From a virus, in IMG/VR virus record IMGVR_UViG_3300030294_000163, positions 1 to 23,288 of that record: DNA of 23,288 nt; one strand, 5' to 3'. The notes under the pieces are model-generated. The model made no database searches. It saw only the letters and a program-made list of their open reading frames with translations, and was not told where the DNA came from. The stretch's first letter is position 1. The number at the start of each line of letters is the position of its first letter. Positions 2,763-23,127 of the stretch are shown piece by piece. Position numbers and translations under genes: made by a program.

Positions 2763-2792
2763 ATAATGACATCTAATTAGATGTCATTATTT
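2761..2792. terminator. 32-bp perfect palindrome, two-way terminator
   Basis: A perfect inverted repeat centred on 2776/2777. The core arm is GACATCTAA, extended by A/T pairs to 16 bp each side. It is followed by T residues on the plus strand and preceded by A residues, so it can act for both strands. It sits exactly where the plus-strand glycosyltransferase run and the minus-strand small-gene operon converge; the stop codons of both flanking genes lie within it. Confidence 0.8.
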
Positions 2793-3067
2793 TTTAATAT
2801 GTTTTCTTGTTGTTCTTCTAATTCCATAATTTTAAATGAAACTTCATTATATTTCTCAACTACTTCTGGTTTAAACCAAATTGCATTTCTAGTAATAGAT
2901 TCTTTGTTATCAATATCTATTAATCTAAAAATACCTTTTTCTTTCACATAAGGAAATAATCCTTTGCTCTTATTTATGTGATATGTAGATGACATATTTC
3001 CACTACCAATAACATCACTAAAGTTAACAGATTTATATTCAGTTTCGTATATTTTTAAATGATTCAT
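2777..3067 (-). CDS. Small tagged protein (MNHLKIYE type), unknown function
   Basis: A 96-residue protein not matched to a known family. It opens with MNHLKIYETEYKS, a variant of the MKxLKxxE tag seen on several genes of this operon, and its I-Y-E fits the (I/L)-x-E pattern that T4-type prohead proteases cut. The body has a central segment rich in charged and aromatic residues (KGLFPYVKEKGIFRLID) and a C-terminal acidic helix (KIMELEEQQENILK). It is the last gene of the minus-strand operon; its stop lies inside the palindromic terminator. The function is unknown, and the tag meaning is an inference discussed under findings. Confidence 0.7.
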   Translation of the reverse strand: MNHLKIYETEYKSVNFSDVIGSGNMSSTYHINKSKGLFPYVKEKGIFRLIDIDNKESITRNAIWFKPEVVEKYNEVSFKIMELEEQQENILKNNDI

Positions 3068-3073
3068 TTAATA

Positions 3074-3270
3074 TTAATTGTTTTTATATTTTTCATTGAC
3101 AAATTTATCAAAATCACAAATCAATGACTCATGTTTACGTTTCTTGACACGCTTAGGAAGTCCTTTATGTTTTGTTGAGGCAAAATCATTCGCATCTTTA
3201 TTACTGATGTGTTTTGCTATTTTTTTAATTGTAGGCGACACATCTGTTAATTCTCCTTTTTGATAGGCAT
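3074..3270 (-). CDS. Small basic conserved-type protein, broken by a homopolymer frameshift
   Basis: Reading from ATG at 3270, the frame gives MPIKK and then stops because the A-run (T-run 3257-3261 on the plus strand) has five bases. With six, the reading continues as MPIKKGELTDVSPTIKKIA, through DFASTKHKGLPKRVKKRKHE and on to ...VNEKYKNN, about 65 residues, with no other interruption. The downstream frame has no usable start of its own, which argues for one gene. The body is very basic (KRVKKRKH), so nucleic-acid binding is possible. It lies 6 bases upstream of the last operon gene. The plus-strand ORF in the same place is a shadow. Either the assembly lacks one base or slippage restores the frame. 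Confidence 0.65.
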
Positions 3271-3300
3271 GAACTATTATTAAGTAATTAAAATATTTAA

Positions 3301-3702
3301 TTATCTCATTGAGCTTAGTTTAGATAATCCATAAAAAATATCAGATATTCTAACTTTTAAAACAGAAAGTGTTTGTGAACTATAAACAGCAGATGATGAA
3401 GGTCTTTGTAAAAGTGCGGTTAACCATATTGTATCACCACGCTTAACTTGTTTTAAACTTAAATCAGTATTAAGAACTGGTCCGCCAGCAACCTCATCCA
3501 ATTTTTTAATTTCATCTTTATCAGTAATCAATCCAGTAATTTGAACTATATTAACAGGTCCTGTTACTTTTTCATATTCACCATTATCTAATTTAGATAT
3601 AGCAATAATATCATCAGACAAAGTATCATATTCTTTTTCTTTATCAAAGGTTTTTAATTTTTTAGATTTGAAATCATCAAATTTTGTTGTTATATCTGGC
3701 AT
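3301..3702 (-). CDS. Hypothetical protein of the small-gene operon
   Basis: A 133-residue soluble protein, not recognised. The N-terminus (MPDITTKFDDFKSKK) is loosely like the operon's MITKF tag but too different to count. The middle is strand-rich (GPVNIVQITGLIT, GDTIWLTALLQR) and suggests a beta fold; GDTIWLTA is a typical beta-hairpin. The C-terminus ends in a hydrophobic helix (ISDIFYGLSKLSS). No signal peptide or membrane segment is visible. It lies 30 bases upstream of the frameshifted basic gene and 14 bases downstream of the 84-residue gene, all on the minus strand and presumably cotranscribed. Confidence 0.7.
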   Translation of the reverse strand: MPDITTKFDDFKSKKLKTFDKEKEYDTLSDDIIAISKLDNGEYEKVTGPVNIVQITGLITDKDEIKKLDEVAGGPVLNTDLSLKQVKRGDTIWLTALLQRPSSSAVYSSQTLSVLKVRISDIFYGLSKLSSMR

Positions 3703-3716
3703 AATTATCTTATTTT

Positions 3717-3971
3717 TTATATTGCACTGTACGTGTTTTGATATTCAATCAGAAATTCTAATATTTCATCTAAATTTTCATTCACACGATTTATATCTCC
3801 AACATATCCATAATTACCTGAATCTTTAGATTGCTCATTTGACATATTATTTAATGCTGATTTAATAATTTCTAATTTACTAATAGCAGAACTATATCCA
3901 AACATAAATTTTTTATCTACTTCAGCATTTTCTTTTATTAAATCTTCTTCTATGTGTGTAAATTTTTTCAT
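3717..3971 (-). CDS. Small helical hypothetical protein
   Basis: An 84-residue protein predicted to be mostly helical: an N-terminal charged segment (MKKFTHIEEDLIKENAEV), a central helix (SAISKLEIIKSALNNM), a polar glycine-containing loop, and a C-terminal amphipathic helix (NENLDEILEFLIEYQNTY). It has no recognised family. Its start overlaps the stop of the acidic gene upstream by four bases (ATGA), so the two are probably translated together and may interact. The opening MKKFTHIEE has hydrophobic-x-E spacing like the tags of its neighbours, but the match is weak. Confidence 0.65.
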   Translation of the reverse strand: MKKFTHIEEDLIKENAEVDKKFMFGYSSAISKLEIIKSALNNMSNEQSKDSGNYGYVGDINRVNENLDEILEFLIEYQNTYSAI

Positions 3972-4297
3972 TCTTCTTCAAATTTTTTTATTAAAGTTGG
4001 ATCTTCATCAGCTTTCAAACCTGTAATATCACCTTCTGCTGCTAATTCATCATCTTCTACATCTTCTAAATTTGTTTCATCTTCAACTACACCAAGTTCA
4101 GAGTCTTCAACTTTAACAAATGTATAATCTGATAATTCGTCAAGTATATCTTCTTCAGTAACTTCTTCATCAGTGAAGTTATTAACTATATTATGAATAT
4201 CATGCAATGTTAATACATATACTCCTTCTTCAGTTGCATCAACTTCAATAGTTGATTCATTAAGTTCGTAATTTGTGAAATTTATTATTTTTTCCAT
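3968..4297 (-). CDS. Highly acidic hypothetical protein
   Basis: A 109-residue, strongly acidic protein: the second half is dominated by Glu and Asp (DETNLEDVEDDELAAEGD). The N-terminus MEKIINFTNYELNE has an L-x-E after a short mixed hydrophobic/basic leader, which resembles T4 capsid-targeting leaders more closely than most proteins here. A compact central part (GVYVLTLHDIHNIVNNFTDE) may fold. Acidic phage proteins of this size can be scaffold-type, internal or DNA-mimic proteins; nothing visible separates these options. It is coupled by an ATGA overlap to the downstream helical gene. Confidence 0.65.
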   Translation of the reverse strand: MEKIINFTNYELNESTIEVDATEEGVYVLTLHDIHNIVNNFTDEEVTEEDILDELSDYTFVKVEDSELGVVEDETNLEDVEDDELAAEGDITGLKADEDPTLIKKFEEE

Positions 4298-4312
4298 TTT
4301 TATTTTTATTTT

Positions 4313-4621
4313 TTATATGTTAAATTTTTTTGTGTCTTTGTATGTATCAGGATCATTTAAAAATAAAATAAAATCTGAATATTCATCTCCTGTAATTCTA
4401 TACCAAGTACCTTGAGATTTTGATGGTTGATAATCTACCTGTATTCTATTATTTCTTAATATTTTAAAATCTTGTATATAAATAATATCTTCATTTTTAA
4501 ATTTTAAAAAATCATATAGGCAATGTTTAATATAATCTCTCTCATCATCATTTTTCTTTAATCTATCATATGTCCAATCTCCAAATACATTAGAATTTTC
4601 ATACATTTTTAAATGTTTCAT
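4313..4621 (-). CDS. Tagged small protein (MKHLKMYE start, KKFNI end)
   Basis: A 102-residue protein bearing both end signatures of the local family: MKHLKMYENSN at the start and DTKKFNI at the stop. The body between (WTYDRLKKNDDERDY, then strand-like IIYIQDFKILRNNRIQVDY) is unlike the other members, so the ends are conserved while the middle is not. Its ATG overlaps the stop of the upstream 141-residue gene by four bases. No catalytic motif was seen. Confidence 0.7.
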   Translation of the reverse strand: MKHLKMYENSNVFGDWTYDRLKKNDDERDYIKHCLYDFLKFKNEDIIYIQDFKILRNNRIQVDYQPSKSQGTWYRITGDEYSDFILFLNDPDTYKDTKKFNI

Positions 4622-5043
4622 CTTAATTTTAATTTTTCTAATAAATATTCTTTATATTTTTCTATAATTTTATCAACTAAATAATCCTCATTAAATTTAC
4701 TATTATCAATATCATAAATTTTTTTTTCATTTATTTTAATGTTAATATTATTTTCATTGTTATTCTTATATGTAGATAAATTACTTATTATTTTATCTCC
4801 ATTAGATAATCTTAGACTTAAATATGTTTTATATATTAAATTATTATTTTTGAAATTATCTTTTTTGAAATATCCAACAATTTCAGTTAATCTTATTGGT
4901 TTAGGACTATTTTTTCTTCTATATGATATAATAGAAAGTTCATGAGTTATCTTATCAATAAATTCTTTATTTTCATTTTCTACGTCAATTTTTATATCAG
5001 TTAAATCTATTTTTTCATATAATTTTTCAAATTTTGTTATCAT
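4618..5043 (-). CDS. Tagged small protein (MITKFEKLYE start)
   Basis: A 141-residue protein starting MITKFEKLYEKIDL; L-Y-E fits an (I/L)-x-E site. The body is rich in Lys, Asn and Ile with alternating strands (YKTYLSLRLSNGDKIISNLS) and ends with a long charged helix (DYLVDKIIEKYKEYLLEKLK). It lacks the KYNI tail. It overlaps the next gene by four bases and is separated from the preceding one by three, consistent with a tightly coupled operon. No family was recognised. Confidence 0.7.
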   Translation of the reverse strand: MITKFEKLYEKIDLTDIKIDVENENKEFIDKITHELSIISYRRKNSPKPIRLTEIVGYFKKDNFKNNNLIYKTYLSLRLSNGDKIISNLSTYKNNNENNINIKINEKKIYDIDNSKFNEDYLVDKIIEKYKEYLLEKLKLR

Positions 5044-5046
5044 TTT

Positions 5047-5346
5047 TTAAAGATTGTATTTTTTTGCTTTCTCTCTAATTTCATAATCATCAATTGAGTT
5101 ATCTGTTGTGAAAATTCCTCCAGCATAATGATATATAAAAATGCTATTGTGTTCTTCACGATTACTATCTAAAATTAAAATATTACAAAAATTGTTATTA
5201 TCATCTTTTAATCTCATACCAAGACTAGAATCATAAACTTTATATTTTTTACCTTTCGTAAACTTCCAATAAAAATTTCCATCAAATGGACTCACACATA
5301 ATAGATAATTTATTTTAGATTCATATTGTTTAAATTTTGTTATCAT
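5047..5346 (-). CDS. Tagged small protein (MITKFKQYE start, KKYNL end)
   Basis: A 99-residue protein with both signatures: MITKFKQYESK and the tail REKAKKYNL. The middle (FYWKFTKGKKYKVYD, GMRLKDDNNNF, NILILDSN) reads as a small beta barrel of SH3-like character, which is an inference from the strand and turn pattern. Its first 17 bases lie inside the 3' end of the HNH endonuclease gene, whose last codons (QYDNKI) are the tag region read in another frame. This fits an endonuclease gene that landed directly against the start of this gene. Confidence 0.7.
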   Translation of the reverse strand: MITKFKQYESKINYLLCVSPFDGNFYWKFTKGKKYKVYDSSLGMRLKDDNNNFCNILILDSNREEHNSIFIYHYAGGIFTTDNSIDDYEIREKAKKYNL

Positions 5347-6019
5347 ATTGTATAATATTAAATTCTGATTCTATTTTTTTATTTTTTGATGAATTATTTG
5401 AACGTGTTGTTATACACAAATTTTCGATTCTTGATATCTCAACTGTCGATATGTTATTATCAAATCCATATCTTATTGAATTTTTATGATCAATTGTCGG
5501 ATATTTTTTATCATTACTATCTAATTTAAAATTTTCTAAAATATATTCAGTTGAATAATAATCATAACCATTCCAATTACTCAGCAACTCTTTCTTATTT
5601 TTTAATGTTTCTCCGTAAACTGATAAATAATAATTGTAATAATCATCTCTATCTTCAACTTTTAACCATCTACCATTTTTTATATTTGTCTCAAGTGTCT
5701 TATCTGTTACATCTTTTGACATTGTTGGATAAGGCACTCCCAATTTTTCTAAATTTGTAATATCATTTTTTTCAAATTCACATTTATTGCAAGTATCAAA
5801 ATCAAATTTTTTACGTTGATTTAAATATTCTTGATATGTTATATTTTTAATTTCACCACATCTATCACAAATAACATTTACTCTAAATTTACTATTTTTA
5901 GATAATTCATTAGAATTTATTTCTATAATATCACCATATTTTACATCATATCCTAATGATATAAAATGATTAGTATTTTTAGTTACAATTTTTATTTTTA
6001 TTTTTTCTGTTATTAACAT
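5330..6019 (-). CDS. HNH homing endonuclease with N-terminal zinc-ribbon domain
   Basis: A 229-residue free-standing endonuclease. The N-terminal half holds a zinc-ribbon: CDRCG at about residues 50-54 and CNKC at about 77-80, preceded by FRVNV. Then comes an NLEKLGVPYPTMSKDV segment like the KYG repeats of other phage homing endonucleases. The C-terminal part carries the HNH core: PTIDHKNSIRYGFDNN, then IENLCITTRSNNSSKNKK, i.e. the D-H, the central N and the final N/K-rich strand of HNH nucleases. Such enzymes nick or cut DNA to spread their own gene. The N-terminal domain is closely similar to that of the Vsr-like endonuclease at 19204-20825, although the nuclease domains are unrelated. It is inserted in the tagged-protein operon and interrupts no recognisable gene. 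Confidence 0.8.
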   Translation of the reverse strand: MLITEKIKIKIVTKNTNHFISLGYDVKYGDIIEINSNELSKNSKFRVNVICDRCGEIKNITYQEYLNQRKKFDFDTCNKCEFEKNDITNLEKLGVPYPTMSKDVTDKTLETNIKNGRWLKVEDRDDYYNYYLSVYGETLKNKKELLSNWNGYDYYSTEYILENFKLDSNDKKYPTIDHKNSIRYGFDNNISTVEISRIENLCITTRSNNSSKNKKIESEFNIIQYDNKI

Positions 6020-6033
6020 TATTATATCTATTT

Positions 6034-6375
6034 TTAAGAATTCGGTAAAACGAAATCATTAGTAACTTGATTAGGGTTAGATGCAGGCGAATAATCTGTG
6101 CTACATGGCTGTTCCTGAGTCCAGGAAGGTCGATATGGCTCCTTTATAGAATCAGTTTTATTTATAACCATATTTTTATCGAATGGAATAGGCCTTTGAT
6201 AAGGAAATGGATTATTAGGAACATCAAATGAAAACTGTTGATGAATTCCATCTTCTGTTACAATTTTAACTGGAACGATTTCCCTTTTATCTGTTTTAGG
6301 TACTTTATACATAATCAAAACAGTATCTCCTAAATCGAATCCACTTTGCTCAAATATTTTAAATTTTGTTATCAT
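6034..6375 (-). CDS. Tagged small protein (MITKFKIFE start), proline-rich tail
   Basis: A 113-residue protein opening MITKFKIFEQSGFDLGD, the clearest form of the tag (I-F-E). The next part (GDTVLIMYKVP, EIVPVKIVTEDG) has the GD-x-V start and strand pattern of small SH3-like barrels. The C-terminal third is Pro/Asn/Ser rich (NPFPYQRPIPF, PYRPSWTQEQP, YSPASNPNQ) and probably extended and flexible. The KYNI tail is absent. It lies upstream of the HNH gene with a 14-base gap. Confidence 0.7.
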   Translation of the reverse strand: MITKFKIFEQSGFDLGDTVLIMYKVPKTDKREIVPVKIVTEDGIHQQFSFDVPNNPFPYQRPIPFDKNMVINKTDSIKEPYRPSWTQEQPCSTDYSPASNPNQVTNDFVLPNS

Positions 6376-6390
6376 TAAATTTTGTTGTTT

Positions 6391-6669
6391 TTATATGTTA
6401 AATTTATTAGTTGAAATTTTAATTGATTTCTCTGGCGTAATATTTTTTTTTATAATTTTTTTAAGAACATCTTGTGCATATGAATCATATTTTGCCCTAT
6501 CGTCATAATAAAATATATTCATATCTTCCACATTAATCTTTGCAATAAACTCACCATCTATATCATCAATACTTTCAAAGGCATTCAAATAGATAATATC
6601 ACCTTCTATAAAATCAATATTTATCTTTACCCAAATACTTTTTTTTTCAAAATATTTTAAATATTTCAT
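6391..6669 (-). CDS. Tagged small protein (MKYLKYFE start, NKFNI end)
   Basis: A 92-residue protein with the start MKYLKYFEKKS and the end ISTNKFNI. Between them is EGDIIYLNAFESIDDIDG, a GD-x-I-x-L barrel-like opening, followed by EFIAKINVEDMNIFYYDD and a C-terminal helix (AQDVLKKIIKKN). The start and tail match the plus-strand gene at 17272-17559 (MKYLKKFEKKN ... SDKYNI), so these two are probably paralogues even though they lie 11 kb apart and on opposite strands. Confidence 0.7.
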   Translation of the reverse strand: MKYLKYFEKKSIWVKINIDFIEGDIIYLNAFESIDDIDGEFIAKINVEDMNIFYYDDRAKYDSYAQDVLKKIIKKNITPEKSIKISTNKFNI

Positions 6670-6679
6670 ATTTCATATA

Positions 6680-7014
6680 TTATATATTATATTTTTTTGA
6701 ATCTTTCAAAGATTTCAATTCGTCTTTATTCTCAGACCAAAATTTAAGATGATATAAATGATATTCATGAATATATTCATAGTCAAAATAACCTAACCGT
6801 AATATTTCAGTTGGTACGTTATCAAATTTTACAACATAAACTATTTCTTTCCCTCCATGACTTCTTGGAGTCTCTATTATTTCTCCAACATTTTCATTCA
6901 AAAATTATAAATATTTATGTTATATTTTTCATATTTTTTAGATTCAATTATTACAAAATCACCTACTTTTGGCGCTACACTAATAGATTCAAACAATTTA
7001 AATTTTATTATCAT
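6680..7014 (-). CDS. Tagged small protein, broken by a homopolymer frameshift
   Basis: ATG at 7014 gives MIIKFKLFESISVAPKVGDF and continues IESKKYEKYNINIYNF to a TGA. With one more T in the run (A-run 6900-6904 on the plus strand, five bases) the frame continues without a break as LNENVGEIIETPRSHGGKE, then VYVVKFDNVPTEIL, and ends DSKKYNI. The rejoined protein of about 111 residues has both family signatures and a barrel-like body (KVGDFVIIE ... NENVGEIIE ... YVVKFDN). The ATG overlaps the preceding stop (ATGA). The 73-residue downstream frame alone would start at an internal Met and lack the tag, so a single gene is the better reading. Confidence 0.75.
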
Positions 7015-7685
7015 AAATTATATTTATCTGATTTATTTTTAATAGAATCATACATCTCTTGCTTTGTTGCTTTTTTTATTATTGCACGAAATTCCACAAA
7101 AATTGACATATCCTTTTTTATCATATCAATTTTACTATAAAAATTATCTTCACTCAACTCATTAAAAAACTCATAATTTTTACCAATTTCTGTGATGTTT
7201 TTACTTTTAAATATTTTTTCTAGCTCTTCACATTTTTCTAAACTTAATGGTATAGTATAGAACATTTTATTTTCATGTTTATCGTCACCTATTAAATATA
7301 AATATAAAACATATAAATCATCATCAATATCTATTACTTTAGGTAATTCATCTTTTGTGTAATTAAATTTTTCTTTTGGATCATATATAACATAATTATC
7401 TTCATTTAAAATTATTTTTGGAAAATTTTTTAAATTATCACTAAAGTGTTGCCTAATATAATATAAATTTTTAATTTCATCATCTTCAGATAAATCATCT
7501 ATATTTATACCTTCATCCTCTAAAAAATGTAAAATTGCATCTTCATCTATATCTATAGCTTCATCATCATCATCAGCATTTCTTATAAGTTCATCCTTAA
7601 AATATTCACACAATGTTGAATTTTTTATAATATCAATAATATTATCATTACTGATATTTTCGAATAATCTAAATTTTGTTATCAT
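7011..7685 (-). CDS. Tagged acidic protein (MITKFRLFE start, DKYNL end)
   Basis: The largest of the tagged proteins at 224 residues, with MITKFRLFENISND at the start and KNKSDKYNL at the stop. After the tag comes a strongly acidic region (NADDDDEAIDIDEDA; LSEDDE), then strands (NYVIYDPKEKF, DLYVLYLYLIGDD, MFYTIPLSLEKCEELEKIF), and a C-terminal mixed helix region (SIFVEFRAIIKKATKQE). No family was recognised. Its stop is coupled by four bases to the next, frameshifted gene, and it starts 2 bases after the stop of the first operon gene. Confidence 0.7.
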   Translation of the reverse strand: MITKFRLFENISNDNIIDIIKNSTLCEYFKDELIRNADDDDEAIDIDEDAILHFLEDEGINIDDLSEDDEIKNLYYIRQHFSDNLKNFPKIILNEDNYVIYDPKEKFNYTKDELPKVIDIDDDLYVLYLYLIGDDKHENKMFYTIPLSLEKCEELEKIFKSKNITEIGKNYEFFNELSEDNFYSKIDMIKKDMSIFVEFRAIIKKATKQEMYDSIKNKSDKYNL

Positions 7686-7687
7686 AA

Positions 7688-8062
7688 TTAAAAATCTGTT
7701 TTTATTGCATTTGTATTTGTGTATTCTACATTTTCAGCAGATGTTTCTGTTCCTGTTTTAATCTCAATCATATTACTATCAGCCCAATCATAAATATCAT
7801 CCCAAACTGATGTACTTTCTTCTATTTTATCTTTATTTTTAGTCATTCTATCTATTAATTCTTGCAATTTAACCCAAGAATTTTGAGATGTTTGTTTAAT
7901 TATCAAATCTTTTTGACTATTTAAAAAATTTATATAATTTTCATTAAATTTTACTAATTCATTAGAATTTTCATATAATGAATCATTCCAAATTTTGGAA
8001 ATATCTAAAATTAGATTCCAATCCTGTTCTTTTTGTTCAAATATTTTAAATTTAGTAATCAT
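7688..8062 (-). CDS. Tagged helical protein (MITKFKIFE start), first gene of the minus-strand operon
   Basis: A 124-residue protein starting MITKFKIFEQKEQDW. The remainder is mostly helical: LILDISKIWNDSLYEN, KFNENYINFLNSQKDLII, and WVKLQELIDRMTKNKDKIEE, with a Trp-containing acidic helix WDDIYDWADS and a polar tail. The helices resemble a small bundle; no known family. It is the promoter-proximal gene of the minus-strand operon, divergent from the fibre gene at 8143. An AT-rich intergenic region of 80 bases carries putative promoters for both directions. Confidence 0.7.
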   Translation of the reverse strand: MITKFKIFEQKEQDWNLILDISKIWNDSLYENSNELVKFNENYINFLNSQKDLIIKQTSQNSWVKLQELIDRMTKNKDKIEESTSVWDDIYDWADSNMIEIKTGTETSAENVEYTNTNAIKTDF

Positions 8063-8142: not shown

Positions 8143-9537
8143 ATGCCAAACATAATAAGAATAAGAAATTTAGATAAAGAAACTAATATAACTGGTGGAT
8201 TAATATTTCCTGTTGATTATAGTGGTGATACACTAAATCAAGGCTACACTTCTAATATAAAAAGAATAGATTTAGCTCAAATTAAAGATTTTGTATTATT
8301 TGATTATACTGGCTCAACAAGTGGAACTGATGGTACATCTGGTGTAGATGGTTCTTCTGGTGTACATGGTTCAAATGGTAGTTCTGGTATATCACCTTGT
8401 CATGCATATCAATCGAATACAATAATAATATCTTATTCTTCAGTATCACAAACGCCATATATAATAACCACTATTCCAAAAATTGAAAGTCTACCAATTT
8501 CAACTACTATACCATTTAATAGTGGTATTTGTTATATCGTTTCAGGAACAACAGGTGTAACTTTTTTTGTGACAGGATTAACAGGTTTAACTGATTATTC
8601 ATATGAATGGTATTTAAACGATAAATTAGTAAATTTAGGTAATATTTATATACTATCATATCCTAATGATAATGATAAAATTTATTTAAAACAAATAAAT
8701 TGCACAAATGTTAATAATATTATGGTCGCAGAATATTGTGCTGATTGTAATTCTGGAGTAACTGGAACATTTAGATATAGGACAGATTCATATAATTCAT
8801 ATTTAGAAATTTGTATGAAATCTGGTGTTGGTAATTATATTTGGTATCCTATTGTCTCAAATTCATGGGCTACCACAACGACCACTACCACATTTCTAAT
8901 TGTTAATCCTCCGATACTAATAAATGCATATATTCAAAATGGAGATATTATGATAGCATATTCTGGCGTGTCTATTAACACTCCAACAATGAAGATATGG
9001 ATTTCATATGATGATAATGTCACTGGGTATCTAATTGATATAGATCCACTTACTCCTATTGTAAATATAGGGCAACAAACGAATTTCTTGAGACAAATGA
9101 TGTGGTTTTGGGCTAGTGTACCAAATTCTTTATCATCAAATATTATTACTTTTGATAATTCTATTCCAGTCACAACTACAACAACCACAACCAATGCGAC
9201 TACAACAACCACAACAACCACCAACACACCAACCACAACAACTACAACGACAGTTTTTTCAAGTATAATGTATTATTGTGTAAAAAATAGTGGAGCTAAT
9301 AATTATACAGATGCATATAATTTATTTGATGTAGGATCAGCAGTACCTGTATATGTTTCTAGTATGACTAATGGTAACCAAGTTTATGATGATTCTGAAT
9401 TGACGATATTAGCATTTGATATATCATACTCGAACAAATATATCGCACTTACATCATCATTGAGTGATAATCCAACAATATGGATATTATTATTTGAAAA
9501 TAGTGATATTACAACACACGGTATCTATCAATTTTAG
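8143..9537 (+). CDS. Fibre-like structural protein with collagen-like and poly-Thr segments
   Basis: A 464-residue protein. Residues 1-50 (MPNIIRIRNLDKE ... IFPVDYSG ... RIDLAQIKDF) match the start of the following gene and look like a virion-attachment domain. Residues 61-82 are collagen-like Gly-x-y triplets (GTDGTSGVDGSSGVHG). A C-x2-C module (EYCADCNSGVTGTFRYR, then YLEICMKSG and a W) spans about 197-235 and is shared with the neighbour. Poly-Thr runs at about 243-250 and 344-372 separate C-terminal beta-rich domains that differ from the neighbour's. The set-up of anchor, collagen stalk, linkers and variable end domain suits a trimeric tail or head fibre that touches the host. No chaperone or catalytic motif was seen. 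Confidence 0.65.
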   Translation: MPNIIRIRNLDKETNITGGLIFPVDYSGDTLNQGYTSNIKRIDLAQIKDFVLFDYTGSTSGTDGTSGVDGSSGVHGSNGSSGISPCHAYQSNTIIISYSSVSQTPYIITTIPKIESLPISTTIPFNSGICYIVSGTTGVTFFVTGLTGLTDYSYEWYLNDKLVNLGNIYILSYPNDNDKIYLKQINCTNVNNIMVAEYCADCNSGVTGTFRYRTDSYNSYLEICMKSGVGNYIWYPIVSNSWATTTTTTTFLIVNPPILINAYIQNGDIMIAYSGVSINTPTMKIWISYDDNVTGYLIDIDPLTPIVNIGQQTNFLRQMMWFWASVPNSLSSNIITFDNSIPVTTTTTTTNATTTTTTTTNTPTTTTTTTVFSSIMYYCVKNSGANNYTDAYNLFDVGSAVPVYVSSMTNGNQVYDDSELTILAFDISYSNKYIALTSSLSDNPTIWILLFENSDITTHGIYQF

Positions 9538-9601
9538 ATATCAATAAATAATACCGCAAAAAAATAGAATAATAATTTGTAAAACACAAAAAAGTATACA
9601 T

Positions 9602-10657
9602 ATGCCAAACATAATAAGACCAAGAAATTTTGAAAAGGAATATAATTTAAACGGTGACATAATTTTACCTGTTGATAATTCTACATATGGAACAGTTAGT
9701 AAACAAATAAATTTATACCAAATAAAAGAATTCTCATTATCTGGTATAACAGATGTGAGTTCAAGTGGAAAAAATGGCACATCTGGTATGAATGGAATAA
9801 TTGGTATAGATGGAGAAAACGGTACATCAGGATTATTACCATCGTCAGGATTAACACACGAAGTTAATATATTAGATTATTGCGGAGATTGCAATTCAGA
9901 TATAGTTGGAACTTTCAGGCATAGAATTAAACAAAATTTACCATATTTAGAAATATGTATGCAAACAGGCAGCAATGAATATTCATGGATTAATTGTATT
10001 CCTACTACAACTACAACGACAACTATACCTCCTACAACTACAACGACAACTATACCTCCTACAACTACAACGACAACTATACCTCCTACAACTACAACGA
10101 CAACAACAACATATAATCCATTAACATTAATTAGTATACAACAAAGTGGAGGTACAGCAGATTTGATGACAATTTTTAACTCCGGAAATACAACAATAGG
10201 AACATTAGCTTATCAATATTCAATAGACAACGGAGTTACATACACAGGTTTATTGGATTACGGTAGCGGTGTTAGTCCTAGAAATATTGGTAGTCAAATA
10301 ATTTTTCCAAGAACAGGATTAACATTTAAAATATATGATGTCACATCATCCAGATTATCAAATTCTGCGTTTTATGATAACAAAGAAACATTAATTCTAA
10401 ACTCAATCATCAATAGTTCAGGTAGTTTAATTTTAGGATTTAATGATGGAGGACAATCTATATCAGCAATGGATATATATTATAGATTATCTTCAACAGG
10501 AGGAGCATGGATATATGTTAAAAACATATCCGGCGGATTATCTAGCCCAATTAATATAGGACTAAAAACAGAATATCCATTAACAGCAATTCAAATTATA
10601 ACAATGGATTATCCAGGATATAGATACTCAAGTATGATTTCTATCATAAATGTATAA
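9602..10657 (+). CDS. Second fibre-like protein, paralogue of the preceding gene
   Basis: A 351-residue protein. The N-terminus (MPNIIRPRNFEKEYNLNG, ILPVDNS, KQINLYQIKEF) matches that of the preceding gene. Residues 56-77 are collagen-like (GKNGTSGMNGIIGIDG). The shared module is DYCGDCNSDIVGTFRHR ... YLEICMQTG at about 92-123. Next is a Thr-rich linker of repeated P-P-T6-I units encoded by 27-bp tandem repeats, then a unique C-terminal beta-rich domain (about 172-351), probably the exposed binding part. A 64-base gap without a clear promoter separates it from the upstream paralogue, so they are likely cotranscribed. The pair looks like a duplication followed by exchange of C-terminal domains. 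Confidence 0.65.
   Translation: MPNIIRPRNFEKEYNLNGDIILPVDNSTYGTVSKQINLYQIKEFSLSGITDVSSSGKNGTSGMNGIIGIDGENGTSGLLPSSGLTHEVNILDYCGDCNSDIVGTFRHRIKQNLPYLEICMQTGSNEYSWINCIPTTTTTTTIPPTTTTTTIPPTTTTTTIPPTTTTTTTTYNPLTLISIQQSGGTADLMTIFNSGNTTIGTLAYQYSIDNGVTYTGLLDYGSGVSPRNIGSQIIFPRTGLTFKIYDVTSSRLSNSAFYDNKETLILNSIINSSGSLILGFNDGGQSISAMDIYYRLSSTGGAWIYVKNISGGLSSPINIGLKTEYPLTAIQIITMDYPGYRYSSMISIINV
10001..10111 (+). repeat. 27-bp tandem repeat coding for Thr/Pro linker
   Basis: Three copies of a 27-bp unit (10001-10027, 10028-10054, 10055-10081) and a partial fourth. The unit reads CCTCCTACAACTACAACG then ACAACTATA; the first copy has ACT in place of the second CCT. It encodes P-P/T-T6-I. Copies are nearly identical at the base level, a sign of recent expansion or of slippage, so copy number may vary among relatives. 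Confidence 0.9.
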
Positions 10658-17271: not shown

Positions 17272-17559
17272 ATGAAATATTTGAAAAAATTTGAAAAAAA
17301 GAATCTAATATACATAGAGGGTGATCATGTGTTTGTTTCTGGCTATCCAGATATTAACAATTTTTGTCAAATATCTAAAATCAATAGTCATAAATCAAAT
17401 GGTGGTTGGGATTATATGGTTAATTTTTTTGACGATGATGGATATCATTCATTTCCTAACGGAATACACATAGATGAAGATGATATAGATAGATATTTAA
17501 CAGCAGATGAAATTTTAGAATATGAAATAAAAATATCATCTGATAAATATAATATTTAA
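17272..17559 (+). CDS. Tagged small protein (MKYLKKFE start, DKYNI end)
   Basis: A 95-residue protein. The start at 17272 (MKYLKKFEKKN), two bases after the gp6 stop, is preferred over an upstream in-frame ATG at 17242 that would overlap gp6, because MKYLKKFE is the family tag and the tail SSDKYNI also matches. The body (YIEGDHVFVSGYPDI, NNFCQISKIN, WDYMVNFFDDDGYHSFP) looks like an SH3-like barrel with a GD-x-V start. It is the only plus-strand member here and sits in the baseplate operon, which suggests late expression with structural genes and supports a virion or internal-protein role for the family (inference). Its stop overlaps the stop of the convergent gene at 17556. Confidence 0.75.
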   Translation: MKYLKKFEKKNLIYIEGDHVFVSGYPDINNFCQISKINSHKSNGGWDYMVNFFDDDGYHSFPNGIHIDEDDIDRYLTADEILEYEIKISSDKYNI

Positions 17560-18255: not shown

Positions 18256-18659
18256 TTATATTTTCACTGATATTGATGGAGTTTTAAATCCTAAATATAA
18301 AAAGAATTGGGATAAAAAATGTATTAATAATTATAATAGAATTTGTAGCGATTTAAATTTAATTGCTATCATAACATCAACATGGAGAGTTAGATATACA
18401 ATAGAAGAATTACAAAAAATATTCATTAAACAAGGAATAAAAGTAATTATAAATGATTACACACCAATTTTAAATACTGATAGAGGGTTAGAAATAAAAA
18501 AAATGGTTAGATGATAATGAGCATGATAAATATGTAATTATTGATGATAAAATTTCTGAAATAGTACCGTATGTTAATAATATAATACACTGTAAAGGAT
18601 GGATTGGATTAACAGAAGAACATTACGAAGAAATAAAAAAAATGATGAATTATGGCTGA
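18248..18659 (+). CDS. HAD-type phosphatase (HAD_SAK-like), broken by a homopolymer frameshift
   Basis: ATG at 18248 gives MNNYIFTDIDGVLNPKYKKN; DIDGV is HAD motif I (catalytic Asp and second Asp). IAIITSTWR is motif II (Thr/Ser), with W-R typical of the HAD domain of Swiss-army-knife RNA-repair proteins and similar small phage phosphatases. After RGLEIKK the frame breaks at an eight-A run (18496-18503). With seven A the sequence continues WLDDNEHDKYVIIDDKISEI, whose VIIDD is motif IV, then CKGWIGLTEEHYEEIKKMM to a TGA at 18657. The rejoined protein is about 137 residues, complete for this family. A TTG at 18236 was rejected as a start. It overlaps both gp25 and TerL-N by 8 bases. The substrate is unknown; nucleotide or nucleic-acid end phosphates are the likely type. 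Confidence 0.7.
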
Positions 18660-19167
18660 TAATAAAGTTGAAGATTTTATATTAACAACAGAAATTGTAA
18701 ATGAAATAACAATAAAAGAAAATTTAGGTAAACCTTTAAAAAGGTTTGAAAAATTGTGGTTCTCTAACATGAGAGGTATTCGCAGAACAAATCTAACATT
18801 TGCTATGACTGAGTTAGAATTTGAAGAATATATAAAATGTAAAATCAATGTTCAATATTTTGCTGAACATTATTGTCAAATTAAAAGAGAAGATGGTTCA
18901 ATTGGTCCAATGAAACTACGTGACTATCAAAAAGATATTATTGACTTATATACAAAAAATTCAAGAAGTATATTAATGGCAAGTCGGCAGACAGGAAAAT
19001 GTAATTATTTTAACAACAAAGTTTTGATGAAAAATATTGACGGTACAGAATATACTATATCTATTGGAGAGTTATATTATAATGAATTAAAGAAGGATAG
19101 GAAGTTTAATATATTTGAAAAAATAAAAATACTTTTATATAAAATAATAGATAAAATTGAAAAATAA
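18652..19167 (+). CDS. terL: TerL N-terminal fragment fused to split-intein N-fragment
   Basis: A 171-residue protein in two parts. Residues 1-116 are the N-terminus of the large terminase: the helical lead-in, MKLRDYQKDIIDLYTKN at about 87-103 (adenine/Q-motif area), and SILMASRQTGK at 106-116, the Walker A P-loop minus its final Thr. Residue 117 is Cys, and CNYFNNKVLMKNIDGTEYTI then SIGELYY is intein block A. Residues about 150-171 (KFNIFEKIKILLYKIIDKIE) form an amphipathic helix and then the gene stops. The IntN is therefore 55 residues, much shorter than the usual ~100, and the split lies between blocks A and B, as in AceL-TerL-type inteins. The partner is at 20947. A two-way terminator follows at once. 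Alone this protein lacks Walker B and the nuclease, so activity requires trans-splicing. Confidence 0.9.
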   Translation: MADNKVEDFILTTEIVNEITIKENLGKPLKRFEKLWFSNMRGIRRTNLTFAMTELEFEEYIKCKINVQYFAEHYCQIKREDGSIGPMKLRDYQKDIIDLYTKNSRSILMASRQTGKCNYFNNKVLMKNIDGTEYTISIGELYYNELKKDRKFNIFEKIKILLYKIIDKIEK

Positions 19168-19196
19168 AAAATTGTGACTAAAAGTCACAATTTTTT
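19166..19196. terminator. Two-way terminator between TerL-N and the endonuclease gene
   Basis: AAAAAATTGTGACT (19166-19179) and AGTCACAATTTTTT (19183-19196) form a perfect 14-bp stem with an AAA loop. A-run and T-run at both ends make it work for both strands. It lies between the stop of the TerL N-half (19167) and the stop of the convergent endonuclease gene (19204). Confidence 0.85.
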
Positions 19197-19203
19197 AAAA
19201 AGT

Positions 19204-20825
19204 TTATTTTTTATAAATAAATTTCATATTTCCGGAATCATATATTCTATAAATTTTTCTTTCTAGCATAATATCATGTTCTGTTTTATTAATGTTATTA
19301 ATATTTTCTTTTATTAATTTATTTTTTTTGAAATTAAATCTATCTTTTTTTATCCCATTAATTATATAACAATATGAAGGTGATGTATTTTTTATAAAAT
19401 TAAATCCTAATTTATAACACATTTCTCCTTTACTCCAAGATTTATCATCATAACATATTATTTCATCATAATCATATTTATCTATAAAATAATCAAAAAT
19501 TTTATTATATCCTTCTATAACTATAGTATTTAATTTATCACAAAATCTCAACATTTCACAAGATTTATAATCATTTTTATGCTGTTTATCTTTTTTTATA
19601 TTACCAAATATCATTAATGACACGAGAGAATCTTCATAATAAAGTCCAATTTTAATTTTAGAATTTATATATCCTTGTAAATGATTTTTATTTAAAAAAT
19701 CATTTACAATATTATTATCTGATATTTCGATTATATTAGTTTTTGTTGATAATATTTTATTTTCAATATTATCTAATATATTTAAAATTTTTGATTTTAT
19801 AATGTCTTTTTTGTATATCCAATCATCTTCATAAATATGAATTAATTGTATTCCTTTATCTTCACACATTTTAGTTTTCATTGAATGATAATTATTTGGT
19901 TTATACAATTCATTGTGCCAATATAATCCATTAAATTCAAATGCCAATTTTAAATCTGTAATATAAATATCCAACTCAAAAGGATTTATTACAAATCTAT
20001 CATTTTTAACAATATTATAATTACAATTATTAAAAATAAAATCACATACATCATTTTCTTTATCTGAATTTGAACTTCCTATTGGATTACAAATAGTACA
20101 CAACGATGTATCTGTACATATTCTATTATAAAATATAGTTTTTGGAATTTCAAATTTATGTCCTTTTTCACACTTACATATATAATTATATTTTTCGTAA
20201 TTCACATCTAATAAATTATATTTAGCATACATGTTTATTAGTCTTTCCTTTCTTTTATCAAATATTTTTTCTCTAATATAATCCACTTTAAATATACTAT
20301 CTACACCATATTTTTTAAGACAAGTTTCTTTATTTTTAATCATATTATTATAATTTTTATCACCATATTTTTCTAATTTTGTTTCTTTATTTTTAATCAT
20401 ATTATTATAATTTTCATTACCATATTTTTCTAATTTTATTTTTTTTATATTTTTTTAGAACATTCTAATTTATTAAAATGATCAACTCCATATTTTTTGA
20501 GACAAGTTTCTTTATTTTTTTCTATGTTATTATAATTTTTATTTCCATATTTTTTTAATTTTGTATCTTCTGTTTTTAAATGTTTACATTTAATACAATA
20601 ATACATTTTAGATTTTTCAATGTTATTATTATATAATCTATATTGTATATATTTTTCATCCCCACAATTATCACATTTCACATTAACTTTAAAGGCACTT
20701 GTTTTTTGTAAATCTTCTATTTTAATATTGAAATTATCACCAGTTTTTAATATATATCCTATACTTCTATAATATGTAATATTTTTACTACTTACACTAA
20801 TATTCACAAAATCATCAATTATCAT
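19204..20825 (-). CDS. Vsr-like (EDxHD-type) homing endonuclease inside the fractured terL, frameshifted
   Basis: About 540 residues if rejoined. The first frame (ATG at 20825, 126 residues) has a zinc ribbon (FKVNVKCDNCG ... YYCIKCK) and starts a series of 19-residue repeats (KYGNKNYNN, TCLKKYGVD). It stops at the A-run 20450-20456, seven bases on the minus strand; with eight it continues SKKNIKKIKLEKYGNENYNN into the 398-residue frame. That frame holds further repeats, a second zinc site (CKCEKGH ... CTIC), then the nuclease: FELDIYITDLKLAFEFNGLY, WHNEL, and CEDKGIQLIHIYEDDW. This E-L-D ... F-E-x-N ... I-H-x-x-E-D-D-W series is the Vsr-related homing endonuclease family found between split-intein halves and in I-Bth0305I. 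It would cut an unoccupied terL or intein allele to spread. It is convergent with TerL-N and divergent from TerL-C. Confidence 0.85.
20290..20564 (-). repeat. 57-bp imperfect tandem repeats coding KYG modules
   Basis: Five consecutive units of about 19 codons, e.g. TKLKKYGNKNYNNIEKNKE, KLEKYGNENYNNMIKNKE, TKLEKYGDKNYNNMIKNKE, alternating with TCLKKYGVD units. The two central copies are nearly identical at the base level. In free-standing homing endonucleases such modules are thought to add DNA-binding contacts. The frameshift lies between the second and third unit. Confidence 0.8.
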
Positions 20826-20831
20826 ATTCGT

Positions 20832-20849
20832 TTTTTAATTATATATTAA
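20832..20849 (-). promoter_or_regulatory. Putative promoter of the endonuclease gene
   Basis: Minus strand reads TTAATATATAATTAAAAA, 6 bases before the ATG at 20825. The identical 18 bases occur on the plus strand at 20916-20933 before the TerL C-half, so the two genes have matching divergent elements. Confidence 0.5.
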
Positions 20850-20915
20850 TATTTGATAGGTCAAAATGTAATATAACTATTAAAAATAAATAAAAATAAA
20901 TACACTCATCATTTT

Positions 20916-20933
20916 TTAATATATAATTAAAAA
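20916..20933 (+). promoter_or_regulatory. Putative promoter of the TerL C-half
   Basis: TTAATATATAATTAAAAA, 13 bases before the ATG at 20947. Identical to the element before the endonuclease gene and similar to those at 8111, 11908 and 17851. Because a two-way terminator lies upstream at 19166, the C-half needs a promoter of its own. The rest of the 121-base intergenic space (20826-20946) is AT-rich with a short TAAAAATAAA direct repeat (20881-20900) and holds no further gene. Confidence 0.5.
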
Positions 20934-20946
20934 TTAATTAAAATTA

Positions 20947-23127
20947 ATGTTTAAAAAATTTATTAAAAATGTAATATATTTTATAATTCAATCTATTGAA
21001 AAATATGAATTTAGAAATTTTAATCCTAATGAGGAAGATATAATGAAGAAATTCGTTAATACTATATTCCTTGATAAAGAAATATTAGTAGAAACAGATT
21101 ATGGATTTGTTCCAGTGACTGAAATGAATATAACTCAACCATTTCAAATATATAGTCTAGAATTAGAAAACGGATTATGGCTTGAAGGCGCTGATACTCA
21201 TATGATTTTTTGTAAAGATCATAATATAAAAATGTTAATAGATTTGACTACAGATGATTATGTATTAACAAAAAAAGGAGAAAGTAAAGTCAAAAAAATT
21301 TCTAAACTAAAAAACAAAGTGAGTATGTTCGACCTATCTATAGATACTCCTGAAATGAGCTACTACACAAATGATATACTTTCTCATAATACAGTTTCTG
21401 CAGCCATAGTTTTACTTCATTTCGTGCTATTTAATGATGATAAAGGATGTATGGTAGTGGCAAATAAAGGAAAAACAGTAAAAGAAATCATACGAAAAAT
21501 AAAAGATATTTATAAGTTAGTACCATTTTTTCTTAAAAAAGGAGTAACTAACTGGAATGAAACTCAGATTGCATTTGAAAATAATTCAAGAATTCAAACA
21601 GAGAACAGAACTAAAGATCCCTCGATCGGATTTACTATAGATTTTCTTTATCTCGATGAGTTTGCTCACATTCCAGATAATTTCATTAGAGATTATTATG
21701 GTGCTATTATTCCAGTAGTATCATCAGTTAATAATTCGCATATTGTAATAACATCTACTCCAAATGGATATAATATGTTTTGGGAATTATTCACAAATGC
21801 TGAATTACCAGAGGATGATCCATTAAAAAATCCATATAAGGCTATGAGAGTCTTATGGAATCAAGTACCAGGAAGAGAAGACACTAAAATTAAAGTAATG
21901 GATGCTAAATTAAAAAAATTCAATATAGCAAAATCTTCTTTATTACGAGAAATAAGAGACAAATATGATATTACGTTATACAAAAAAAGCATAGGAGAAG
22001 ATATGTTTGATTGTGTCGCTTATAATGTGTTGGATGAAAAAACTCACATTGGTAACATAAGAAAGATAAGAATAAATGGTATTCCTCTACCCGAATTGGC
22101 AGTTGTTAGTAACTGGCAAGAAGAAGAAACTAAATTATTATTATCCTCTGATAAATTTGATCAAGAATATGGATTACATTTTGTCACAGGAGATAAAATT
22201 CTTTTCAACAAAGACACAATTGATTTATTAAAAAGTAAACAATTACCTTTTGATAATATAAATATTAATCAATTTGAAAAGTTTAAATTTCCATATGAAT
22301 CTTTAAAATTTGTAAAAGATTTAAGTCTATTTAATGTTGCGAGATCAAAAGAATACTACACAGTTCTTTCTATAGATTTATCAGAGGGACTAGCAAAAGA
22401 TTTTTCTGTTATAAATATATTCAAATTAGAATTAAGAGATAAAAATGAAATAGAAAAATATGAATACGATAACATACAAGATTTATTTAAACTTGAGCAA
22501 ATAGGACTATTTAGAAACAATTTATACTCAATCAGAGAACTTGCCCATATGCTCTATCTTATTGCATTTGAGTTATTTGATCCAGAAAAAACTAAAATAG
22601 TACTAGAATATAATACATATGGTTCTGAATTATTAGCACATCTTCCTAATGTATTTGATGGTAAAAATAATTATTCGAATTCTGTATTTTTAAGATATAA
22701 ACACAACAGAGAAGATATAGCAGGTAAAATAGGAATGAAATTAAGTAAAGATAAACATCTAATTATTGACAAGGAATTTCAGCAATCAATTAGAAATAGA
22801 AAAATGATATTACACAGTGAGATAAACATAAAGGAAATAACCACTTTTAGTAAGCATGAAACAACATCTGGTATGATTACATACAAAGCTGAGAGCGGAA
22901 ACGATGATGTTGTAATGACAACTATAACACTATCCACATGCTTTGATAATATTGGATATAAAAATTTGGTTGAATTATATGTAAATAATAATATTCAAGG
23001 TGATATGCTAAGATATGTTGAGAATATTACTAGTTTATCTGAAAATACATCAGGACTAATTGGAGCACACAGTAGAATTTACAGACGAAATCCTACTATT
23101 TCAGGATCAAGATATCCTGGAAGATAA
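20947..23127 (+). CDS. terL: Split-intein C-fragment fused to the TerL C-terminal part
   Basis: A 726-residue protein. Residues 1-148 are the intein C-fragment: a helical lead (MFKKFIKNVIYFIIQSIEKY), then the Hint beta part with block B at 82-88 (ADTHMIF, His85), block F around 125-143 (VSMFDLSIDTPEMSYYTND) and block G ILSHN ending at Asn148, with penultimate His147. Thr149 is the +1 nucleophile and also completes the Walker A (GK-T). Residues 149-726 are terminase: Walker B LYLDEFAH (Asp237, Glu238), motif III ITSTPNG (268-274), and the RNase H-like nuclease with Asp477 and Glu480 (SIDLSEG), Glu554 (VLEYN) and Asp653/654 (GNDDVVM). The spliced TerL would be about 694 residues (T4 gp17 is 610). 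It packages DNA into proheads with ATPase and nuclease. No residue of the active sites is missing. Confidence 0.92.
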   Translation: MFKKFIKNVIYFIIQSIEKYEFRNFNPNEEDIMKKFVNTIFLDKEILVETDYGFVPVTEMNITQPFQIYSLELENGLWLEGADTHMIFCKDHNIKMLIDLTTDDYVLTKKGESKVKKISKLKNKVSMFDLSIDTPEMSYYTNDILSHNTVSAAIVLLHFVLFNDDKGCMVVANKGKTVKEIIRKIKDIYKLVPFFLKKGVTNWNETQIAFENNSRIQTENRTKDPSIGFTIDFLYLDEFAHIPDNFIRDYYGAIIPVVSSVNNSHIVITSTPNGYNMFWELFTNAELPEDDPLKNPYKAMRVLWNQVPGREDTKIKVMDAKLKKFNIAKSSLLREIRDKYDITLYKKSIGEDMFDCVAYNVLDEKTHIGNIRKIRINGIPLPELAVVSNWQEEETKLLLSSDKFDQEYGLHFVTGDKILFNKDTIDLLKSKQLPFDNININQFEKFKFPYESLKFVKDLSLFNVARSKEYYTVLSIDLSEGLAKDFSVINIFKLELRDKNEIEKYEYDNIQDLFKLEQIGLFRNNLYSIRELAHMLYLIAFELFDPEKTKIVLEYNTYGSELLAHLPNVFDGKNNYSNSVFLRYKHNREDIAGKIGMKLSKDKHLIIDKEFQQSIRNRKMILHSEINIKEITTFSKHETTSGMITYKAESGNDDVVMTTITLSTCFDNIGYKNLVELYVNNNIQGDMLRYVENITSLSENTSGLIGAHSRIYRRNPTISGSRYPGR

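What the first reader, a model, noticed from the sequence alone, without database searches (positions are those of the whole stretch)
18652..23127. Fractured terminase: TerL split in the Walker A loop by a trans-splicing intein, with an endonuclease gene in the gap
Seen: TerL-N reads SRQTGK then Cys and block A; TerL-C reads block B, block F, HN then Thr and the rest of TerL. Rejoining gives SRQTGK-TVSAAIV, an uninterrupted P-loop. The halves are 1.8 kb apart with an opposite-strand endonuclege gene between. Known: fractured genes with split inteins and Vsr-like endonucleases, and atypically split TerL inteins (AceL-TerL, IntN about 25 residues), were described from metagenomes. Here IntN is 55 and IntC 148 residues, a split between blocks A and B with extra sequence on both sides. 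An essential packaging ATPase thus depends on trans-splicing at its own ATP site.
Basis: partly seen in the sequence, partly recalled or inferred. Interest (0 to 1): 0.93.

Follow-up and report, generated by a model that had tools for sequence, protein, structure and literature searches.

The report
DNA-packaging motor gene split by intein
In a large-phage lineage the gene for the DNA-packaging motor is broken in two exactly inside its ATP-binding loop, each piece carries half of a self-splicing protein element (an intein) that should weld the pieces together, and related phages show the same element absent, whole, or with the two gene pieces far apart and even on opposite DNA strands.

Summary
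TerL-N (18652-19167) ends SRQTGK|Cys1 plus a 55-residue IntN. A 148-residue IntC (20947-21390) ends SHN|T and is followed by the rest of TerL (to 23127). Four separate IMG/VR records carry the identical locus. Closely related phages (95% identical TerL) have an uninterrupted SRQTGKTVSAAIV, so the insertion point is exact. IntC has an intein (Hint) fold and is under purifying selection like TerL itself. About 35 distinct alleles carry the split intein; empty alleles are interleaved with them on the TerL tree. One pair shows a co-conversion tract, so the element moves by homing. The two pieces lie 42 bp to ~24 kb apart, and in two contigs on opposite strands, which argues for protein rather than RNA splicing. 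The 735-kb phage LR756501 has the same fracture, 12.4 kb apart. Corrections: the gap endonuclease (EDxHD/Vsr-like) is frameshifted here. The AceL/GOS-TerL/Cat inteins sit at another TerL site (|CEF). The extra 25+43 intein residues are conserved predicted helices. I call it a new variant of the known fractured-gene/split-intein kind; splicing itself is not demonstrated.

The parts
18652..18999 (+). TerL N-extein (116 aa), ends MASRQTGK, first part of Walker A
   Evidence: phrog_5989 E=1e-17; empty-site homologue L005 97% identical
19000..19167 (+). IntN, 55 aa: Cys1, block A region, then a conserved C-terminal tail (~25 aa, predicted helix) and stop
   Evidence: C1, F4, Y26, Y27, E40, K43, L46, Y47 invariant in 16 sequences; helix in the homologous model
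19165..19197 (.). hairpin with T-run, terminator-like, between TerL-N and the gap endonuclease
   Evidence: 1 found in region, 0.6 expected by shuffling; weak
19204..20400 (-). C-terminal ORF of EDxHD/Vsr-like homing endonuclease (catalytic domain present)
   Evidence: phrog_3339 E=7e-89; PDB 3r3p E=0.023 single, 0.001 profile
20445..20825 (-). N-terminal ORF of the same endonuclease, separated by a frameshift in an A-rich tract
   Evidence: homologues in L020, L039, L042, L071, L086 are one frame
20947..21075 (+). IntC N-terminal extension (~43 aa), conserved predicted helix, absent from Cat/AceL-type and from short relatives
   Evidence: (PDB matches start at residue 44-54)
21076..21390 (+). 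IntC Hint core: block B His85 (21199-21201), block F Asp129, terminal His147-Asn148
21391..23127 (+). TerL C-extein (578 aa) from +1 Thr of Walker A, with Walker B FLYLDE (21643-21660) and C-terminal region

Best explanation
This is a fractured terL gene. A mobile, atypically split class-1-type intein was inserted between Lys and Thr of the TerL Walker A motif. The gene now makes two proteins, TerL-N-IntN and IntC-TerL-C. I infer that they dock first through the conserved IntN-tail and IntC-head helices, the Hint fold then closes, Cys1 and +1 Thr carry out acyl shift and transesterification, Asn148 cyclises, and TerL is released with an intact SRQTGKT P-loop, as in the empty allele. The gap carries, or carried, a free-standing EDxHD/Vsr-like homing endonuclease that spreads the interrupted allele into empty terL genes by gene conversion; here that endonuclease is frameshifted, while the split intein is kept because TerL cannot work without it. 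Shown: anatomy, exact empty site, fold, conservation, selection, allele mosaicism, one co-conversion tract. Inferred: splicing, helix docking, homing by this endonuclease, essentiality.
For:: anatomy and junction residues; empty site joined in relatives 95% identical; L003 (split) and L004 (empty) come from the same metagenome; intein fold; dN/dS of IntC 0.08-0.24 in 12 pairs, in the range of the TerL exteins (0.04-0.41); IntN 0.12-0.49; split and empty states interleaved on the TerL tree (5 or more forced changes for split, 7 or more for empty). L016 vs L041 has 0 nt differences in the first 171 bp of TerL next to the insertion, rising to about 11-19% distally; halves on opposite strands ~24 kb apart in G008 and G009, and 12.4 kb apart in LR756501; no Rfam intron; no other TerL passing PF03237 in G001, G002, G008, G010, G011; the second hits in LR756501 and G003 are ATPase-only paralogues; endonuclease profile matches I-Bth0305I (3r3p).
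Against: No spliced product, peptide or transcript has been seen. Block B has Ala where the classical TxxH Thr stands (A82xxH85), and some relatives lack the penultimate His (SLN) or end in Gln (LR756500), so efficiency could vary. The endonuclease of this allele is probably broken. The single-chain structure model is confident only for the IntC core; the IntN part is poor (pLDDT mostly under 60). Amphipathicity of the two added helices is only weakly supported (shuffle p 0.02-0.21).
Confidence: 0.88

Rival explanations
1. [quoted passage not shown]
For: terL is interrupted by group I introns in other phages (PMC10448857; PMC12363816).
Against: No Rfam match in the window. The interrupting ends are intein halves with conserved Cys1 and HN under purifying selection. 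In G008 and G009 the halves lie on opposite strands.
Confidence: 0.03
2. The two TerL pieces act as separate non-covalent subunits without splicing, like the genes-in-pieces NrdA of another phage (cited in PMC10448857).
For: Splicing is not demonstrated; a precedent for a functional enzyme in two pieces exists.
Against: Intein catalytic residues are kept under strong constraint, which a two-subunit enzyme would not need. The break lies inside the P-loop and empty alleles restore it exactly.
Confidence: 0.05
3. A decaying element: the locus is a dead remnant and packaging relies on another TerL in the genome.
For: The endonuclease is frameshifted. ATPase-only TerL paralogues exist in LR756501, LR756500 and G003. 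The window is only 23 kb.
Against: TerL halves and intein halves are all under purifying selection. The three huge-phage paralogues lack the Walker A Lys (SRQMGI) and the nuclease domain. A 345-kb relative has only the split TerL.
Confidence: 0.03

Closest known systems
Fractured genes with split inteins and EDxHD (Vsr-like) homing endonucleases (Dassa et al. 2009, cited in PMC10448857 and PMC11766414; primary text not held)
   Same: Phage gene in two ORFs, each fused to an intein half, with a Vsr-like endonuclease gene in the gap
   Different: From memory, those used canonical splits (IntN ~100 aa) in gp41, IMPDH and NrdA-type genes. Here TerL is cut in its P-loop with an S2-type split, the pieces are in some relatives tens of kb apart or inverted, and some alleles have no endonuclease
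AceL-TerL / GOS-TerL / Cat atypical split inteins (PMC11766414; PDB 6dsl)
   Same: TerL host, break after the first helix, Cys1 (AceL, Cat), Hint fold
   Different: Inserted at TerL |CEF with Cys+1, IntN 25-37 and IntC 104-115; here GK|T with Thr+1, IntN 53-58, IntC 143-154, added helices on both sides
Contiguous TerL P-loop inteins of Ackermannviridae (Ag3, LIMEstone, Kevin)
   Same: Same GK|T site and homologous Hint domain
   Different: One uninterrupted ORF, no added helices; plausible state before the split
Delftia phage PhiW-14 terL (L114)
   Same: Two ORFs at the same P-loop site, annotated only as the C half
   Different: Pieces in one frame separated by two stop codons and about 50 bp; no helices, no endonuclease
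Mirusvirus and alloherpesvirus terminases (PMC12768974)
   Same: Terminase parts encoded tens of kb apart, sometimes on opposite strands, and rejoined
   Different: Rejoined by RNA trans-splicing between ATPase and nuclease domains, not by an intein

Membership tests
Class 1 intein (Hint superfamily) | Cys/Ser1, block-B His, block-F region, terminal (H)N, +1 Cys/Ser/Thr | tested here: met
   C1, H85, D129, H147, N148 invariant in the 16 IntN and 21 IntC sequences of A1/A2, +1 Thr; block-B Thr is Ala; five further relatives lack the penultimate His
Class 1 intein (Hint superfamily) | Hint fold | tested here: met
   gp41-1 E=0.002; Foldseek: VidaL, gp41-1, Cat, NrdJ-1; IntC core pLDDT above 90
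Class 1 intein (Hint superfamily) | Protein splicing activity | not testable with these tools
   needs expression
Fractured gene (split intein plus free-standing endonuclease) | Host gene in two ORFs each fused to an intein half, empty homologues exist | tested here: met
Fractured gene (split intein plus free-standing endonuclease) | Intact EDxHD/Vsr-like endonuclease gene in the gap | tested here: inconclusive
   family match to 3r3p E=0.001 and motif residues present, but the gene is frameshifted in this allele
Atypically split inteins (S2 split) | Break between block A and block B, after the first helix | tested here: met
   alignment to CatC and gp41-1 starts at IntC residue 44-54; contiguous relatives continue through this point
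AceL/GOS-TerL insertion allele | Insertion at TerL |CEF with Cys+1 | tested here: not met
   window site is GK|T with Thr+1; the L100 relative at E|CEF matches CatC E=7e-10 with C-extein CE
T4-type TerL | Walker A SRQxGKT and Walker B hhhhDE in the rejoined chain | tested here: met
   SRQTGK|T and FLYLDE; PF03237 and TerL PHROGs; nuclease active-site residues not checked

The most novel reading that the evidence does not exclude
The break has become part of packaging biology: the conserved IntN-tail and IntC-head helices are a dedicated docking clasp that makes trans-splicing reliable from distant loci, and holding the TerL ATP site open until both halves are made and spliced acts as a post-translational timing switch in huge phages. 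Some phages (L173) have gone further, with TerL in three polypeptides joined by two split inteins.
Probability: 0.15. Interest if true: 0.88.

Novelty: new variant of a known kind. Interest (0 to 1): 0.62.

Why it matters
It gives one homologous insertion site at which every stage of gene fracturing can be seen in nature: empty, contiguous intein (Ackermannviridae), stop-codon split with a gap of about 50 bp (PhiW-14), 42-bp gap without endonuclease (L037), kb gaps with different endonucleases, 12-24 kb separation and inverted pieces, and three-piece TerL (L173). That makes the origin and upkeep of split inteins testable, one of the largest known phages (735 kb) is among the carriers, and it adds about 35 natural, unusually long split-intein pairs as tools. 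It also parallels, at the protein level, the RNA trans-spliced terminases of mirusviruses. For annotation: TerL in such phages is often called from the C half only, so motor-domain absence or misplacement in TerL trees can be an artefact.

Tried and rejected
Misassembly: rejected (four identical records). RNA intron: no Rfam hit and opposite-strand halves. Identity with AceL-TerL: rejected by site and +1 residue. Intact second TerL: the extra hits in LR756501, G003 and LR756500 are ATPase-only genes with SRQMGI instead of SRQxGK. A full IntN+IntC AlphaFold model with alignment for both halves failed because MAFFT kept placing the IntN tail on the similar IntC head, or otherwise misaligning the fragments, so only the IntC-supported model was run; its IntN part is unreliable and helix docking is unproven. 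Amphipathicity of the helices is not clearly above shuffled sequence. Promoter scan uninformative in AT-rich DNA. Primary papers by Dassa 2009 and Bachmann and Mootz 2015 are not in the held library.

Full report
OBSERVATION. The window is a complete 23,288-bp IMG/VR record. ORF 18652-19167(+) encodes 116 aa of TerL ending MASRQTGK, then Cys and 54 more residues. ORF 20947-23127(+) encodes 148 aa ending ILSHN, then TVSAAIV and the rest of TerL. Both TerL parts match terminase profiles. The gap is 1,779 bp. Three records from other metagenome assemblies (L002, L003, L008) are identical to the window at 100% over 5.4-7.9 kb that include the whole interruption, so this is not a one-off assembly error.

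EXACT SITE. A scan of IMG/VR for TerL-C gave 53 loci. Thirteen have an uninterrupted TerL at this point, including L004-L006 and L031, which are 95% identical to the window over TerL-C and read MASRQTGK|TVSAAIV with nothing between. L003 (split) and L004 (empty) are in the same metagenome. The insertion is therefore between Lys and Thr of Walker A.

SAME ELEMENT IN MANY ALLELES. Adding the loci and the genome records, I count about 35 distinct split alleles with IntN of roughly 51-58 aa (53-58 in 16 aligned) and IntC of roughly 143-154 aa. IntN keeps C1, F4, Y26, Y27, E40, K43, L46, Y47 in all 16 aligned sequences. IntC keeps block-B His85, Asp129, His147, Asn148 and a set of head-helix residues (K7, I10, F12, I14, Q15, I17, E18, Y20, E21, R23) in all 21. 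Five further relatives lack the penultimate His, and LR756500 ends in Gln. Codon analysis of 12 pairs gives dN/dS 0.08-0.24 for IntC, 0.12-0.49 for IntN and 0.04-0.41 for the TerL parts. Both intein halves are maintained, not decaying.

FOLD. The IntC profile matches gp41-1 (E=0.002), NrdJ-1, CatC and VidaL in the PDB by sequence from residue 44 onward. L037 has its two halves in one frame, 42 bp apart between the IntN stop and the IntC start; read through its stop codons (an in-silico device only) it was modelled with 29 IntC sequences. The IntC core has pLDDT above 90, the IntN part is poor, and helices are predicted for the IntN tail (38-54) and IntC head (67-94). Foldseek against the PDB returns inteins throughout the top of the list. 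The tail and head are extra relative to known atypical split inteins, whose natural IntN are 15-37 aa (PMC13014065; AceL 25/104, GOS 37/115, PMC11766414). Short relatives at the same site lack both tail and head (L092: IntN 34 aa, IntC about 123 aa; PhiW-14), which fits a paired function; docking itself is inference.

MOBILITY. Split and empty states are interleaved on the TerL-C tree; well-supported branches force at least five (split) and seven (empty) changes (quick tree, three to four long branches). L016 and L041 have IntC synonymous difference 0.02-0.03 against 0.27 in TerL-C. Along TerL-C their nucleotide difference is zero in the first 171 bp and climbs to about 11-19% further away, the signature of co-conversion from the insertion point. 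The site is also used by an unrelated contiguous Ala1 intein with a LAGLIDADG-like domain in L027, L038 and L170, so GK|T of TerL is a homing hot spot.

ENDONUCLEASE. The gap ORFs on the minus strand are one gene broken by a frameshift in an A-rich tract; homologues are single ORFs of about 480-570 aa. The family is phrog_3339/559, and an eight-sequence profile matches I-Bth0305I (3r3p, E=0.001), the EDxHD/Vsr-like type; motif residues are kept in the window. All four records with this allele carry the break, so a sequencing error is unlikely. Other alleles have the intact gene on either strand, a different zinc-finger plus Vsr-like gene, additional ORFs, or nothing (L037).

SEPARATION AND STRAND. 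Gaps range from 42 bp (L037) to kilobases. In the curated 735-kb phage LR756501 (PMC7162821) TerL-N is at 623.9-624.4 kb and IntC-TerL-C at 609.3-611.5 kb, 12.4 kb apart on one strand. In G009 and G008 the halves are about 22-24 kb apart and on opposite strands, while near relatives L142 and L180/L181 have them about 1.1 kb apart on one strand. Inverted pieces cannot be joined by a cis-acting intron; no Rfam intron is present in the window. These two inversions rest on single contigs.

SECOND TERL? PF03237 finds one TerL in G001, G002 (345 kb), G008, G010 and G011. LR756501, G003 and LR756500 also carry a TerL-like ORF of 270-390 aa with SRQMGI in place of SRQxGK and no nuclease domain; these cannot replace TerL. 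The window's own genome is incomplete, so this is not settled for it.

STEPS TOWARDS THE SPLIT. Contiguous homologous inteins at the same GK|T site exist in Ackermannviridae TerL. Delftia phage PhiW-14 has the two parts in one frame separated by two stop codons and about 50 bp containing a terminator-like hairpin, with a Shine-Dalgarno-like GGAG before the IntC start; its annotated gp17 is only the C half.

WHAT IS KNOWN. Fractured genes and atypical TerL split inteins are known. The AceL/GOS/Cat group is at another site: L100 has IntN after ...RQEFE and IntC before CEF, and its IntC plus extein matches CatC (E=7e-10) whose C-extein reads CE. RNA-level interruption of terminase genes is known in ICP1 (PMC10448857), Jug phages (PMC12363816) and, by trans-splicing of distant and opposite-strand pieces, in mirusviruses (PMC12768974). 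I found no paper in the held library describing the P-loop split TerL; the library is partial.

VERDICT. Observation confirmed; interpretation supported with corrections. New variant of a known kind: new site, long intein halves with added conserved helices, extreme separation, natural series from contiguous to three pieces. Splicing, docking and timing roles need the bench.

Noticed in passing
L173 7977-12431 (IMGVR_UViG_3300001336_000045): TerL in three polypeptides: P-loop split intein, then a second split intein (IntN CVTGDT.., IntC ..TVHN|CNFLYLDE) before Walker B, each gap holding its own endonuclease-like gene; a doubly fractured gene.
   Followed up: partly
L114 1964-4243 (Delftia phage PhiW-14, GQ357915): Isolated phage whose terL is split by in-frame stops at the same P-loop site; the deposited annotation calls only the C half as gp17.
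   Followed up: partly
L126 2358-3539, L127 3466-4371, L131 2336-3151, L173 7383-7973: Stand-alone TerL ATPase-domain paralogues without nuclease domain; in three huge phages the Walker A Lys is lost (SRQMGI[ST]), in L173 it is kept (PRQKGKT). Function unknown.
   Followed up: partly
L027/L038 near 4960-5991; L170 389-1399: Unrelated contiguous Ala1 intein with a LAGLIDADG-like domain at the identical GK|T site of TerL in two TerL lineages.
   Followed up: partly
L092-L094, e.g. L092 783-4178: TerL with a short-form split intein at the P-loop plus a contiguous intein before Walker B (FS|CVVLPT...SHN|CNLLYLDE).
   Followed up: partly
L128 3416-4501 (LR756501): A ribonucleotide-reductase-like gene beside TerL-N carries an intein start (NPC|IVGDTLIAV).
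   Followed up: no
window 2777-8062 (-), and ~17281-17559 (+): At least eight small ORFs on the minus strand and one on the plus strand share an N-terminal peptide like MITKFKIFE / MKYLKYFEK, resembling T4-type capsid-targeting signals of internal head proteins (resemblance from memory).
   Followed up: no
window 5330-6019 (-): ORF sharing phrog_5104 and phrog_12131 (homing endonuclease) with the N-terminal gap ORF and weak endonuclease VII similarity; a second possible homing endonuclease in the window.
   Followed up: no
window 8143-10657 (+): Two paralogous ORFs with collagen-like Gly-Xaa-Yaa stretches and long poly-Thr tracts, probably fibre or surface proteins.
   Followed up: no
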